Of a stretch of DNA of 64,000 nt, positions 37,471-44,075 are shown in pieces (position 1 is the first letter of the stretch; each line of letters begins with the position of its first letter). Origin of the DNA: Ensifer adhaerens (GTDB lineage: Bacteria > Pseudomonadota > Alphaproteobacteria > Rhizobiales > Rhizobiaceae); the NCBI RefSeq assembly GCF_013283195.1, contig NZ_JABEKT010000001.1:532795-596794 (forward strand). Reading direction: 5' to 3'. A model generated the notes under the pieces. It saw only the letters and a program-made list of their open reading frames with translations. It was not told where the DNA came from and did not search any database. The position numbers and the translations under genes were made by a program.

Positions 37471-39162
37471 ATGGTTGACTGGTTCGTAAGCACGCTTCGC
37501 ACTTATCCTGAAATTGCAATATTTCTCTCATTGGCGCTCGGATACTACTTCGGGTCGTTCACGTACAAAGGCCTGGGCCTTGGCGCGGTCACAGCGACGC
37601 TGATTGCGGCCGTCATCATCGGGCAGCTCGGTATCACCATATCGCCCCCGCTCAAGGCCACGTTCTTTCTGATGTTCCTGTTTGCGATCGGCTACGGCGT
37701 CGGGCCGCAATTCGTGCGTGGCATTGCCAAGGATGGCCTGCCGCAGGCGTTGTTCGCCGCGGTCGTCTGCGTCTTCTGCCTTGGGGCTCCCTATATCGCC
37801 GCCAAGATAGCCGGCTATGATGTCGGTTCGGCACTGGGACTTTACGCCGGCTCGCAGACCATCTCCGCCTCCATGGGGCTGGGGACGGACGCCATCAATC
37901 GTCTTGGTCTGGCACCGGAAGAAACCAAGCGTCTGCTGGATGCGATGCCGGTCGCCTATGCCGTCACCTATATTTTCGGCACGATCGGATCGGCGATCGT
38001 GCTCGCCCTGATTGGTCCGGCGCTGATGGGTATCGATCTGGAGGCGGAATGCAAACGCTACGAGGCGGAGCAGGGCGGCAAGAAGGAAGTGGGCGGGGCC
38101 GGGACCGCCTGGCACCATTACGAGTTGCGTGCCTACCGCGTGCGCGAGGGCGGGCCGGTCGTCGGCAAGACGGCGCATGAAGCCGAATCCATGATCCCGG
38201 AGCAGCGGATCTTCATTGAACGTATTCGCCGCGGCGGAAAGATCGAGGATGCGACGGCAAACACGGTGATCCAGGCGGGCGACGTCGTTGCCGTGGCCGG
38301 CCGGCGTGAAGTGCTGGTCAGCCTGATCGGGCACGCGGCCGAGGAAGTGGACGACCGCGAATTGCTGGCCGTGCCGGTCGAAGGGGTCGATGTCCTTGTC
38401 ACGACCAAGGAAGCGAACGGCAAGACGCTGGCGGAACTGGCGCAATGGCCAACGTCTCGTGGCGTGTTCCTGCGCCGGATCGCCCGGGGTGCCACGGCGA
38501 CGGAAATTCCGATCCTGCCGAACACGCAGATCCACCGCGGCGATATCCTGACGATCGTCGGGCGGACGCAGGATACCGCGGCTGCCGCCAAGGCTTTGGG
38601 CGTGGCCGACCGGGCGACCGACGTTGCCGACGTCGCCTTCATCGGGGCTGCGATTGCCATCGGTGCCCTGATCGGTGCGCTGGTCTATAAGGTCGGGGAT
38701 GTGCCGTTTACGCTCTCCACCTCAGGGGGCGCGCTGATCTCCGGGCTGTTTTTCGGCTGGCTGCGCTCCGTTCGGCCGAAGTTCGGGCGCATACCGACAT
38801 CGACGGTCTGGTTCATGAATTCCGTCGGCCTCAATGTCTTCATCGCCGTGGTCGGCATTTCGTCGGGCCCAGGCTTTGTTGCCGGCTTGCAGCAGCTTGG
38901 TTTCAGCCTGTTCCTTTGGGGCATATTCGCAACGACCGTGCCGTTGGTGCTGGCGATGTATGTCGGGAAATATGTGTTCCGGTTCCACCCCGCCATTCTC
39001 CTGGGGTGCTGCTCGGGCGCGCGCACGACGACAGCCTCTCTTGGCATGATCAATGATCGGGCCAAGAGCCAGATCCCCGGGCTCGGCTACACCGTGACCT
39101 ATGCCGTCGGCAACACTCTGCTGACGATCTGGGGCATGGTGCTTGTGATGATGATGACCTAG
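37471..39162 (+). CDS. AspT/YidE-family aspartate-alanine-type antiporter (1)
   Basis: A 563-residue inner-membrane protein of the AAE exchanger family. The N-terminal half-domain (about residues 10-165: ALGYYFGSFTYKGLGLGAVTATLIAAVIIGQLG...FLFAIGYGVGPQFVRGI) is repeated in the C-terminal half (about 395-560: FTLSTSGGALISGLFFGWLRS...ARTTTASLGMIND). Between them are two TrkA-C (RCK-C) domains (about 205-375). AspT exchanges aspartate for alanine and so generates proton-motive force together with a decarboxylase. Here the next gene encodes a decarboxylase. GGGGG precedes the ATG at 37471. Confidence 0.9.
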   Translation: MVDWFVSTLRTYPEIAIFLSLALGYYFGSFTYKGLGLGAVTATLIAAVIIGQLGITISPPLKATFFLMFLFAIGYGVGPQFVRGIAKDGLPQALFAAVVCVFCLGAPYIAAKIAGYDVGSALGLYAGSQTISASMGLGTDAINRLGLAPEETKRLLDAMPVAYAVTYIFGTIGSAIVLALIGPALMGIDLEAECKRYEAEQGGKKEVGGAGTAWHHYELRAYRVREGGPVVGKTAHEAESMIPEQRIFIERIRRGGKIEDATANTVIQAGDVVAVAGRREVLVSLIGHAAEEVDDRELLAVPVEGVDVLVTTKEANGKTLAELAQWPTSRGVFLRRIARGATATEIPILPNTQIHRGDILTIVGRTQDTAAAAKALGVADRATDVADVAFIGAAIAIGALIGALVYKVGDVPFTLSTSGGALISGLFFGWLRSVRPKFGRIPTSTVWFMNSVGLNVFIAVVGISSGPGFVAGLQQLGFSLFLWGIFATTVPLVLAMYVGKYVFRFHPAILLGCCSGARTTTASLGMINDRAKSQIPGLGYTVTYAVGNTLLTIWGMVLVMMMT

Positions 39163-39233
39163 GGCGTTCCCCGGAAAATTGCGAAGCAGCTCCTCGTCAG
39201 GAAGTGCGTAAAAACAAAGAGATAGAGCGTTGC
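39163..39233 (+). repeat. Rhizobial dispersed intergenic repeat, family 2, copy 1
   Basis: It starts directly after the antiporter stop codon. CCGGAAAATTGCGAAGCAG, then GTGCGTAAAAACAAAGAGA and TAGAGCG, matches a repeat I remember from many Sinorhizobium and Mesorhizobium intergenic regions. A related copy lies inverted at 51482-51585. Confidence 0.6.
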
Positions 39234-39436
39234 TCCTGTCCGTGTTGTTTCGCAACGCTCGAGCGGCCTGTTCCGGCCGTTCCACACCATCTTTCGAAGC
39301 GCGGACCGGCAGCACAAGGTCCGATTTTCAAAGTGCATCAATCGCGTATTGCGACCAGAATTGTAGCTGCCGCTGAATGAGGACCTCGGACCGGTGGCAG
39401 CGGGCAGCCCATTCGAAACAGAGTTGGGAGCACGTC

Positions 39437-42163: not shown

Positions 42164-42386
42164 CGCCAGGATGCGGGTGGCGCTCGATCGCTTCGACGTG
42201 GTTATACGCATGGTGATGCCTGCGCTTCCTTGGGACTGGCGCACGTAGCTGATGCAGGAAGGCGGGGCGACCGAGGCGGCGTTCGTCGCGAAGGTTCGCT
42301 CCGTCGTCTCGGTTTTGCAGGAGCGTTGGCGGTGGGAGCGAACGCAACATAGCCTTTGATCTGGGCGAGGGGGGACCAGTCTGGAC

Positions 42387-44075
42387 ATGATTTGGGTCGA
42401 GCAATTTCTGATCAAATATCCCGAGCTTGCGGTATTCCTTGCGATCAGCATCGGATATCTGATCGGTGGCCTCAAGGTCGGTGGCTTCAGCCTCGGGCCG
42501 GTGACCGGCTCACTGTTTGCGGGCATCCTGATCGGACAGTTCGCCGATGTCCCGATTGCCGGCATGGCGAAATCGTTCCTGTTCCTCCTGTTCCTCTTCG
42601 GCATCGGCTACTCGGTCGGGCCACAATTCCTGCAGGCATTGAAGCGGGACGGCATGAAACCCGTCCTGCTTGCCGTCGTCGTTTGTGTCACCGGCCTGCT
42701 CACGGCTGTCGTCGTTGCCAAATTCCTGGGCCTGGATCCGGGCTTTGCAGCAGGCCTCCTGTCCGGTTCCCTGACCGAAAGCCCGGCGATGGGTACCGCA
42801 ACGGAAGCGATCAATGCCCTGCCGCTGGCCGAGGCGGATCGCACGCGGTTCGTGGCGCACATCGCCGTGGCTGACGCTGTCTGCTACGTCTTCGGTGCGG
42901 TTGGCGTCATTCTTTTCTGCAGCGTCATAGGCCCCCGGCTGCTTGGCATCGATCTCGTTGCCGAGGCGCTGAAGCTGGAGAAGGAGTATGGCATTACCCG
43001 CAAGGCGGCTGGTGTCTCGTCCGCCTGGCACAGGTTCGAGATTCGCGCTTATCAGATCGCGGATGGCGCACCGGTTGCCGGGCAGTCGATCGCCACCGCC
43101 GAGGCGGCATTTCCCGAACACAGGCTTTTCATTCAGCGCCTGCGCCGGGGCGGCACGATCATCGAGGCGGCCCCGGATGTGGTGATCAAGCCCGGTGACA
43201 TTGTGGCTGTCTCCGGGACGAGAGAGGCACTGGTCAGTGTGCTTGGGCCGCGCGCCGAAGAGATCGAAGATCGTGAACTGCTCGATGTCCCGGTATCGAT
43301 CTGCGACGTGCTGCTGACAAGCCCCGACCTCAAGGGGCGAAGCATCGCCGATCTCGCCAAGGAGAGCTGGACCCGCAGCCTTTATCTGCGCTCCCTCACG
43401 CGTGGGGGCCAGGATATTCCCATTGCGCCGGGGATCACGGTCGAACGCGGCGATATCCTGCGCCTGGTAGGACCGGAGGCCGTAGTGTCGAGCTCCGTCG
43501 AGCGCGTTGGCGTCGTGGTCGCCCCGCCGGCGGCGACAGACTTCCTGGTCCTCGGTCTTGCGATTTTCCTTGGCGGGCTCGTCGGCGTTCTCGTCACGTT
43601 TCCCATTGGTGACATGCGGATTTCGCTGAGCACCAGCGTGGGCACGCTGCTCGCCGGTTTGGTCGTGGGTCACCTGCGCACCCGCTTCCCGCTCTTTGGC
43701 CGGATACCGGACGCCGCGGTCTCGCTCATGACGTCGCTTGGTCTTGCCGCCTTCGTTGCGATGACCGGGCTTCATGCCGGACCTGTGTTTGCCTCGGCAA
43801 TCGCCGAGGCGGGCATCGGGCTTCTGTTCGGCGGCATGATCGTCACCATGGCTCCAATGATCGTGGGCCTTTACTTCGGGCGCTACGTGCTTGGGATGAA
43901 CCCGATCCTGCTGCTGGGCGGGCTCGCGGGGGCGCAGACGATGACAGCCGGGATGGCGGCCGTTCAGGACAGATCCGGCAGCACCGTTGCAGTCCTTGGC
44001 TACACGCCTGCGGTCCCTATCGGCCATATCCTGCTCACGACGTGGGGAACTGTGATCGTCGGTATTGTTGCGTGA
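42387..44075 (+). CDS. AspT/YidE-family antiporter (2)
   Basis: A 562-residue paralogue of the product at 37471, with the same layout: membrane half-domain (MIWVEQFLIKYPELAVFLAISIGYLIGGLKVG...FGIGYSVGPQFLQAL), two TrkA-C domains (about residues 200-370), second half-domain (ISLSTSVGTLLAGLVVGHLRT...AQTMTAGMAAVQD). The two copies differ widely in sequence, which suggests different substrates or partners rather than a recent duplication. It begins 223 bp after the decarboxylase. Confidence 0.9.
   Translation: MIWVEQFLIKYPELAVFLAISIGYLIGGLKVGGFSLGPVTGSLFAGILIGQFADVPIAGMAKSFLFLLFLFGIGYSVGPQFLQALKRDGMKPVLLAVVVCVTGLLTAVVVAKFLGLDPGFAAGLLSGSLTESPAMGTATEAINALPLAEADRTRFVAHIAVADAVCYVFGAVGVILFCSVIGPRLLGIDLVAEALKLEKEYGITRKAAGVSSAWHRFEIRAYQIADGAPVAGQSIATAEAAFPEHRLFIQRLRRGGTIIEAAPDVVIKPGDIVAVSGTREALVSVLGPRAEEIEDRELLDVPVSICDVLLTSPDLKGRSIADLAKESWTRSLYLRSLTRGGQDIPIAPGITVERGDILRLVGPEAVVSSSVERVGVVVAPPAATDFLVLGLAIFLGGLVGVLVTFPIGDMRISLSTSVGTLLAGLVVGHLRTRFPLFGRIPDAAVSLMTSLGLAAFVAMTGLHAGPVFASAIAEAGIGLLFGGMIVTMAPMIVGLYFGRYVLGMNPILLLGGLAGAQTMTAGMAAVQDRSGSTVAVLGYTPAVPIGHILLTTWGTVIVGIVA

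What the first reader, a model, noticed from the sequence alone, without database searches (positions are those of the whole stretch)
37471..44075. Decarboxylase flanked by two distinct AspT-type antiporters: candidate proton-motive or acid-resistance cycle
AspT proteins work with a decarboxylase, exchanging substrate for product and so exporting charge or consuming protons. The classic pair is AspT with aspartate decarboxylase; here the enzyme is of the Orn/Lys/Arg type, whose known partners (AdiC, CadB) belong to another superfamily. Two divergent antiporters plus a porin downstream suggest a complete envelope-spanning cycle I do not recognise as described. SulP1 upstream could handle the bicarbonate released.
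Basis: partly seen in the sequence, partly recalled or inferred. Interest (0 to 1): 0.8.

Follow-up and report, generated by a model that had tools for sequence, protein, structure and literature searches.

The report
Candidate acid-resistance decarboxylase with AspT antiporters
A soil bacterium carries an unusual enzyme that strips carbon dioxide from an amino acid, set between two membrane exchangers; comparison with other genomes suggests it acts on glutamate rather than lysine or arginine, and so could be an overlooked way for bacteria to withstand acid.

Summary
Observation confirmed: SulP, AspT1, an Orn/Lys/Arg-type decarboxylase (DC), AspT2 and a porin lie in a row on the + strand. The linkage is real: in 199 genomes of the window's family, all 12 with a close DC have AspT 35-221 bp away, against 10 of 187 others with AspT anywhere.

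The lysine/arginine/ornithine reading is not supported. DC keeps the catalytic residues, but the glutamate proposed to bind the substrate amine is asparagine in 98 of 98 aligned DCs, and the aligned substrate channel loses its net negative charge. In three genomes canonical glutamate decarboxylase (GAD) adjoins AspT; one has this same cluster with GAD in DC's place. In Lampropedia, DC-AspT lies in a GadB-glutaminase-GadC island.

Best reading: DC decarboxylates an acidic amino acid, most likely glutamate, with AspT2 as exchanger: a GadBC-like, proton-consuming pair. AspT1 is of the type that adjoins aspartate 4-decarboxylase (AsdA), of which a scar remains here. Nothing was assayed; aspartate is not excluded; DC and GAD do not exclude each other. 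New variant of a known kind.

The parts
35440..37140 (+). SulP-family anion transporter (SulP1); neighbour, weakly linked
   Evidence: PF00916 295.5 bits; BicA equivalog model 100.5 of 880 bits; strong relatives in 7 of 80 survey loci
37471..39162 (+). AspT1, AspT-family antiporter of class T1a (the class that usually adjoins AsdA)
   Evidence: TIGR03802 706.8 bits; trees; T1a makes up 17 of 24 AspTs found within 450 bp of AsdA
39437..42163 (+). DC, OKR-fold PLP decarboxylase of the Rv2531c branch (908 aa from the likely start; residue numbers in this report count from the ORF start 39377)
   Evidence: PF01276; PDB best 9n0o/9n0n, 719 bits; Foldseek to 9n0o TMt 0.92; start from L007 annotation and sequence
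40358..40366 (+). codons of R328-G329-K330 in DC: basic residues in the place of the PGH(M/Q)GG loop
   Evidence: R328 and K330 in 98 of 98 DC-family sequences; Gly/His and Thr/Val/Glu/Ala in the five E. coli enzymes
41129..41131 (+). codon of K585, the predicted PLP Schiff-base lysine
   Evidence: aligned with LdcI K367 and AdiA K386; 98 of 98
41603..41617 (+). codons of N743-K-T-S-R747 in DC: in the place of the amine-binding Glu motif of Lys/Orn decarboxylases
   Evidence: N743 98 of 98, R747 97 of 98; LdcI E526, SpeF E532 (AdiA has Thr); Glu526 role as reported in PMC5607190
42387..44075 (+). AspT2, AspT-family antiporter of class T2; likely partner of DC
   Evidence: TIGR03802 556.2 bits; T2 lies directly downstream of DC in 15 of 80 survey loci
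44203..45393 (+). porin (start uncertain)
   Evidence: PF13609 68.1 bits; homologue in the same place in L007 and in the GAD cluster L119
45446..45592 (+). scar of an aspartate 4-decarboxylase (asdA) gene: codons 151-181 abutting 517-534 of the Ensifer canadensis orthologue
   Evidence: tblastn 81% and 89% identity, E 2e-13 and 2e-6; blastn 91% and 87%

Best explanation
DC is an acidic-amino-acid alpha-decarboxylase on the Orn/Lys/Arg-decarboxylase scaffold, most likely for L-glutamate. It works with an AspT-family exchanger, here most likely AspT2, as a GadB/GadC-like pair. Glutamate(-) comes in, decarboxylation uses up one cytoplasmic proton and makes GABA and CO2, and GABA(0) goes out in exchange for more glutamate. 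Each turn removes a proton and brings in a negative charge, so it counters acid and builds proton-motive force. AspT1 is of the class that adjoins aspartate 4-decarboxylase (Asp in, Ala out). That enzyme once stood after the porin and is now only a scar here; the genome keeps one AsdA at a second locus. Shown by comparison: the gene linkage, the loss of acidic substrate-site residues, and the swap with canonical GAD. Inferred: the substrate, the antiport, and the acid-resistance role.
For: (1) Linkage: 12 of 12 close-DC genomes have AspT 35-221 bp away, against 10 of 187 others with AspT anywhere. In the class sample the two besides G000 with DC of at least 55% identity also have it beside DC (58 bp away; 860 bp and divergent), against 0 of 8 remoter DCs. 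Of 80 loci, 68 have a same-strand AspT within 400 bp. (2) The AspT just downstream of DC belongs to different AspT lineages (T4 in 25, T2 in 15, T1b in 15, T1a in 10, T3 in 1, none in 14 of 80), so the partnership outlives replacement of the antiporter. (3) Catalytic residues are kept, but the column with Glu in LdcC, CadA, SpeF and SpeC (Thr in AdiA) is N743 in 98 of 98, with R328 and K330 in 98 of 98 and R747 in 97 of 98. Over 22 AdiA channel columns (list from PMC11186044) net charge is -3 to -4 in five E. coli enzymes and 0 or +1 in 96 of 98 DCs. (4) L119 (G464): AspT1 (87%), canonical GAD, porin, AsdA, then AspT2 (82%), and no DC in that genome at E 1e-100. L120 (G527): GAD followed by AspTs that group with the T4 and T5 classes found around DC in Bradyrhizobium, support 100/100 and 100/92. 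L133 (G267): GAD beside AspT. AspT genomes have GAD more often: 5 of 22 against 9 of 177, p 0.011. (5) Lampropedia L106: GadB-DC-AspT ... glutaminase-GadC. (6) G000 has no GAD match at E 1e-60 and no GadC match at E 0.001. (7) Castellaniella MT123 makes GABA at pH 5.5 without GadA/B/C and has a putative Arg/Lys/Orn decarboxylase (PMC12915299, passages and part 1 of 2 of the discussion read); whether that gene is this DC was not checked.
Against: I saw no activity reported for any member; the solved relative Rv2531c has none assigned (PMC12910592) and lacks two of the marker residues (K330 is Ala, R747 is Ile). The Glu is not universal among basic-amino-acid enzymes (AdiA has Thr), and the alignment around AdiA 734-739 runs through a gap. 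The substrate-site change is shared by remoter DCs that have no AspT beside them, so it does not itself predict the AspT link. DC and GAD do not exclude each other: 1 of 12 DC genomes against 13 of 187 others have GAD (p 0.59), and 5 of 34 DC genomes reached through my loci have GAD; in Lampropedia they are neighbours, which could mean different substrates. DC co-occurs most tightly with AsdA, an aspartate enzyme (11 of 12 against 5 of 187). Four active-site-region loops of the predicted model are below pLDDT 50. L133's place in the AspT tree rests on a long branch. No induction or phenotype data were found for DC.
Confidence: 0.55

Rival explanations
1. DC alpha-decarboxylates aspartate to beta-alanine (alone or beside glutamate), and AspT1/AspT2 exchange Asp for beta-Ala and Ala; all parts of the cluster then serve aspartate.
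For: AspT and AsdA are named for aspartate; AsdA is in 11 of 12 close-DC genomes and within 1.4-3.8 kb of DC in 10 of those 11. DC stands beside GadB in Lampropedia, so it may have another substrate. An acidic substrate fits the residue changes equally well.
Against: Canonical GAD fills the DC slot with orthologues of both antiporters kept in L119. 58 of 80 DC loci, some of them cut by contig ends, show no AsdA within 8 kb, and none of 26 T4 AspTs is in a locus with AsdA.
Confidence: 0.2
2. One reading: DC acts on lysine, arginine or ornithine, and the AspT proteins have become amino acid/diamine exchangers.
For: OKR_DC_1 family membership; OKR fold by Foldseek.
Against: Scores a small fraction of the cut-off on the Lys/Arg/Orn models it matches; amine-binding Glu and channel charge lost; GAD, not another OKR enzyme, is what was seen in its slot in L119; no ORF in loci L007-L114 has AdiC or CadB as its best match (one, in L107, has PotE).
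Confidence: 0.07
3. No coupling: the AspTs belong to AsdA systems, and DC is a neighbour with an unrelated task.
For: AspT1 is of the AsdA-adjoining class and an asdA scar lies after the porin; remoter DCs live in other operons without AspT.
Against: DC-AspT pairs without AsdA are common: T1b and T4 make up 40 of the 66 AspTs directly downstream of DC, and AsdA is in the locus of 1 of the 41 T1b/T4 AspTs counted. They span Alpha-, Beta- and Gammaproteobacteria.
Confidence: 0.13

Closest known systems
GadB/GadC glutamate-dependent acid resistance (E. coli)
   Same: Proposed reaction logic: cytosolic decarboxylation uses a proton, antiporter exchanges Glu for GABA; GAD adjoins AspT in L119, L120 and L133, in L119 in DC's own slot
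   Different: DC is of the OKR branch, not the GAD family (TIGR01788 is not among its matches); the antiporter is AspT-family, not APC
AsdA/AspT aspartate:alanine system
   Same: Same antiporter family above cut-off; often the same gene cluster; twin AspT genes flank AsdA elsewhere in this genome
   Different: Different decarboxylase family and predicted reaction; AsdA is only a scar in the window
AdiA/AdiC, CadA/CadB, SpeF/PotE
   Same: Same decarboxylase superfamily and catalytic residues
   Different: Substrate-site residues and antiporter family differ
Rv2531c of Mycobacterium tuberculosis (PDB 9n0n/9n0o/9n0p)
   Same: Nearest solved relative over nearly the whole length, 719 bits; TMt 0.92; shares N743 and R328
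   Different: 35% identity; R747 and K330 not shared; its gene context was not examined; activity unknown

Membership tests
AspT aspartate-alanine antiporter (TIGR03802) | Whole-protein score above NCBI's equivalog cut-off (546.95) | tested here: met
   AspT1 706.8, AspT2 556.2
AspT aspartate-alanine antiporter (TIGR03802) | Encoded beside aspartate 4-decarboxylase (feature recalled from the model's description) | tested here: inconclusive
   Only an asdA scar nearby; intact in Ensifer canadensis L007; AsdA elsewhere in the genome
AspT aspartate-alanine antiporter (TIGR03802) | Electrogenic Asp/Ala exchange | not testable with these tools
   Needs proteoliposomes
Orn/Lys/Arg decarboxylase, group III (PF01276) | Major domain above Pfam cut-off | tested here: met
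   235.4 of 27 bits
Orn/Lys/Arg decarboxylase, group III (PF01276) | C-terminal domain PF03711 above Pfam cut-off | tested here: not met
   23.6 bits, cut-off 24.2: just under
Orn/Lys/Arg decarboxylase, group III (PF01276) | PLP-binding and catalytic residues | tested here: met
   T394 S395 H419 D507 W510 S582 H584 K585 in 98 of 98
Lysine, arginine or ornithine decarboxylase (functional) | NCBIfam cut-off of a Lys/Arg/Orn model | tested here: not met
   Six models matched, best 167.9 bits against 1167
Lysine, arginine or ornithine decarboxylase (functional) | Acidic substrate site (Glu526/532, negative channel) | tested here: not met
   N743 in 98 of 98; net channel charge 0 in window DC; AdiA itself has Thr at the Glu column
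Glutamate decarboxylase GAD (TIGR01788) | Sequence match to the family | tested here: not met
   Not among NCBIfam hits of DC; no match at E 1e-60 in G000
Glutamate decarboxylase GAD (TIGR01788) | Makes GABA from glutamate | not testable with these tools
   Inferred from gene replacement only
GadC antiporter partner | APC-superfamily GadC in the genome | tested here: not met
   TIGR00910: 0 matches at E 0.001 in G000

The most novel reading that the evidence does not exclude
A second, independently evolved glutamate-dependent acid-resistance system: an OKR-scaffold glutamate decarboxylase paired with AspT-family Glu/GABA exchangers, interchangeable with GAD in whole gene clusters and spread over Alpha-, Beta- and Gammaproteobacteria and a few other phyla. 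It would explain bacteria that make GABA in acid without GadB or GadC. The paired AspT paralogues would handle two substrates (Glu/GABA and Asp/Ala) or form mixed dimers.
Probability: 0.42. Interest if true: 0.75.

Novelty: new variant of a known kind. Interest (0 to 1): 0.6.

Why it matters
These genes and their remoter relatives are annotated as 'decarboxylase', 'ornithine decarboxylase' or 'aminotransferase', so genome surveys may count them as polyamine enzymes or miss them. If the reading holds, it assigns a substrate class to a large branch of decarboxylases with none assigned in what I read (573 related stretches from one capped scan), adds a non-APC partner for glutamate-type decarboxylation, offers a candidate for the 'unidentified decarboxylase' and missing antiporter reported in Castellaniella MT123 (PMC12915299), and predicts that AspT-family proteins called aspartate-alanine antiporters include Glu/GABA exchangers. 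Each step can be tested with ordinary enzyme and liposome assays.

Tried and rejected
Substrate Lys/Arg/Orn: rejected on model scores and site residues. Bicarbonate handling by SulP1: weak. An RNA element or strong promoter in the cluster: Rfam gave only the tRNA (34500-48500); promoter- and terminator-like hits were at chance level (2 against 2.8 expected, 11 against 10.1). Alternative antiporters beside the seven DC loci with flanks that lack AspT: none recognised by eye in the ORF list; L096 has a ferric-reductase-like gene. Mutual exclusion of DC and GAD: not significant. HdeA and carbonic anhydrase as constant neighbours: HdeA in 1 and CA in 0 of 80 loci, though L010 has both. The AlphaFold model did not help with the pocket: loops 316-333, 345-368, 587-590 and 616-620 are below pLDDT 50 and I had no coordinates to measure. 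Literature: searches returned no paper; one listed 27, of which I read titles and abstract starts there and passages of one, and none seen joins an AspT-family antiporter with an OKR decarboxylase or GAD. The library is partial. Whether Castellaniella carries this DC could not be checked; Alcaligenes endophyticus (L080) does, with AspT.

Ten of 80 lack AspT within 5 kb, three of them at contig ends. 'Directly downstream' means an AspT start within 400 bases of the DC end, either strand. AspT classes were read off the quick tree and assigned by best score to 11 references. The tree holds a hand-picked 58 of the 126 rows, plus 12 new rows and E. coli YbjL. G184 is borderline: 55% identical to the window DC, where I count it as close, but 53%, where it falls in the remoter group; counted as remoter, 1 of 9 such class genomes would have AspT beside DC. 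G079, a remoter-DC genome, has an AspT on another contig. Genome samples were searched at fixed limits (DC and AsdA E 1e-100, AspT and GAD E 1e-60), so weaker matches are not counted. Of 19 GAD loci in two samples I fetched ten: three beside AspT, three beside a GadC-like gene, four beside neither; the AspT-bearing ones were chosen on purpose. The nine not fetched have no AspT hit in their genomes, except G542. One of 35 loci was not held. The 98-sequence alignment leaves out 2 of the 80 loci (L082, L092; under 800 aa) and includes 20 others.

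
Full report
What is there. On the + strand lie SulP1, AspT1, an Orn/Lys/Arg-type decarboxylase (DC), AspT2 and a porin. Gaps are 274 bases before DC (from its likely start at 39437) and 223 before AspT2, so a single transcript is not assured. AspT1 and AspT2 share 42% identity. The window belongs to a 7.07 Mb genome, G000. The closest genus-named DCs are in Ensifer plasmids (up to 95%); a 'Rhizobiales bacterium' contig has 96%. Ensifer canadensis has SulP-AspT-DC-AspT-porin followed by an intact aspartate 4-decarboxylase, AsdA. 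In the window only a 147-base scar of that gene is left, directly after the porin: codons 151-181 abut codons 517-534. G000 has one full AsdA, 2.2 Mb away, itself flanked by two more AspT genes. So twin AspT genes around a decarboxylase are not peculiar to DC.

Is the linkage real? I used two samples not chosen for the trait. In 199 genomes of the window's family, 12 carry DC at 63% identity or more. All 12 have a TIGR03802 antiporter 35-221 bp from DC. Of the other 187 genomes, 10 have AspT anywhere (Fisher p 1e-13). Five remoter DCs (48-52%) have no AspT in the genome at E 1e-60. AsdA is in 11 of 12 close-DC genomes and 5 of 187 others, and within 1.4-3.8 kb of DC in 10 of the 11. In 385 genomes of the class, 11 have a DC. 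The two besides G000 with DC of at least 55% identity have AspT 58 bp away (G361) or 860 bp away and divergent (G184, borderline); the other eight have none beside DC. Among 80 titled loci, picked by similarity and so biased, 68 have a same-strand AspT within 400 bp and 70 within 5 kb; of 67 with 5 kb on both sides, 60 have one. Six plasmid loci of remoter DCs have none. The 80 loci are mostly Alphaproteobacteria, but include Beta- and Gammaproteobacteria and single metagenome-derived contigs labelled Acidobacteria, Rokuibacteriota, Thermodesulfobacteriota and Eremiobacterota; the last three of these show an AspT, the Acidobacteria contig ends just after DC.

Which antiporter goes with which enzyme? 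A tree of 126 AspT proteins and a careful one of 71 give several lineages. Directly downstream of DC one finds T4 in 25, T2 (window AspT2) in 15, T1b in 15, T1a (window AspT1) in 10, T3 in 1 and none in 14 of 80 loci. Within 450 bp of AsdA one finds T1a 17 times, T3 5, T2 2, and T1b or T4 never. DC has thus kept an AspT partner while the AspT lineage changed. In the window, AspT2 is the likelier DC partner and AspT1 the likelier former AsdA partner. This is inference from position.

What does DC act on? PDB search and Foldseek both give Rv2531c as nearest. It is a cryo-EM structure without known activity, according to a review (PMC12910592, passages read; the structure paper itself is not held). 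I aligned 98 DC-family proteins (86 at 55% identity or more, 12 below) with E. coli LdcC, CadA, AdiA, SpeF and SpeC. PLP-binding and catalytic residues are constant. LdcI Glu526, proposed to bind the lysine side chain (PMC5607190, passages read), is Glu in four of the five references, Thr in AdiA, and Asn743 in 98 of 98; its neighbour Val524 is Gln741 in 98 of 98. Arg328 and Lys330 are in 98 of 98 and Arg747 in 97 of 98; the five E. coli enzymes have no basic residue at these three columns apart from one His (SpeC). Over 22 AdiA substrate-channel residues listed in PMC11186044 (passages read), the net charge is -3 to -4 in the five references, and 0 in 90, +1 in 6, -1 in 1 and -2 in 1 of the 98 DCs; the columns at AdiA 734-739 border a gap and are less sure. 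PMC4832331 (passages read) describes a negative patch in the LdcI and AdiA channel as a potential substrate site. The site thus no longer looks made for a cationic side chain. That it now takes an anionic one is inference. The change is shared by remoter DCs that have no AspT beside them.

The swap. Searching the same samples for canonical glutamate decarboxylase (TIGR01788) gave 14 of 199 and 5 of 385 genomes. Six of these 19 also have AspT, and in three the two genes are adjacent (HMM matches 128, 162 and 230 bp apart). In G464 (L119) the order is AspT1 (87% identical to the window's), GAD (537.5 bits, cut-off 380.4; 41% identical to E. coli GadB), porin, AsdA, and 4.5 kb on AspT2 (82% identical); this genome has no DC at E 1e-100. 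In G527 (L120) GAD is followed by two AspTs that group with the T4 and T5 lineages found around DC in Bradyrhizobium (100/100 and 100/92). In G267 (L133) GAD adjoins an AspT whose tree position is uncertain. The GAD of G454 (L126), closest by score to those of L119 and L120, adjoins a GadC-like permease instead. In Lampropedia aestuarii (L106) GadB, DC and AspT are consecutive, and a glutaminase and a GadC-like gene, cut by the end of the stretch, follow. G000 itself has no GAD match at E 1e-60 and no GadC match at E 0.001.

Reading. The simplest account is that DC does the job of GAD with an AspT-family exchanger in place of GadC: Glu(-) in, H+ consumed, GABA(0) and CO2 out, gaining both pH control and membrane potential. 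AspT proteins are known as electrogenic Asp(-)/Ala(0) exchangers (PMC9508256, abstract start in the search listing), and their family is said to include glutamate and succinate exporters; the prototype forms dimers (PMC9527358, passages read). An outside hint is Castellaniella MT123, which makes GABA at pH 5.5 without GadA, GadB or GadC; its authors name PanD, an AdiA/CadA/SpeF homologue and others among the candidates (PMC12915299, passages and part 1 of 2 of the discussion read). I could not check that genome.

Against it. DC and GAD do not exclude each other (1 of 12 against 13 of 187, p 0.59; 5 of 34 DC genomes reached through my loci have GAD), and in Lampropedia they stand side by side, so DC might take aspartate. 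The tie to AsdA points the same way. Three adjacencies are few, though two keep the same antiporter pairs. Rv2531c lacks two of the four marker residues. The predicted DC model is unsure in several pocket loops. There are no expression, transport or activity data.

Verdict. Observation confirmed; interpretation partly supported; substrate redirected from basic to acidic amino acids. Ranking: glutamate 0.55, aspartate or both 0.2, uncoupled 0.13, basic amino acids 0.07. It works like GadBC but is not a member of the GAD family; it is a member of the OKR decarboxylase superfamily but fails the tests for a Lys/Arg/Orn decarboxylase.

Noticed in passing
L011 9962-22700; L024 7980-18625: Remoter DC relatives (43-49% identical) sit in a different shared gene order: DC, a 'biotin carboxylase' gene, a C45 peptidase and ABC transporter genes. 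Function unknown, no AspT.
   Followed up: no
window 45857-46447: 196-aa ORF with no Pfam match; homologues in 24 of 80 DC loci, many beside a PPK2 polyphosphate kinase, which is in 25 of 80.
   Followed up: partly
window 46524-50428: A second SulP transporter (-), an AI-2E family transporter (+) and PPK2 (-) follow the cluster; related genes recur near DC in Bradyrhizobium and Rhizobium.
   Followed up: partly
L013 6922-14059 (G000:C1 about 2807421-2814558): Second locus of the same genome: AspT-AsdA-AspT with a convergent citrate/sulfate-type transporter on the other strand.
   Followed up: partly
L106 8245-22682: Lampropedia island: GadB, DC, AspT, HlyD- and FUSC-type efflux genes, choloylglycine hydrolase-like enzyme, glutaminase, GadC-like gene; L121 has GadB, AspT and a choloylglycine hydrolase-like gene in one stretch.
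   Followed up: partly
window 34598-34687: tRNA-Ser (gga) just upstream of the cluster.
   Followed up: no
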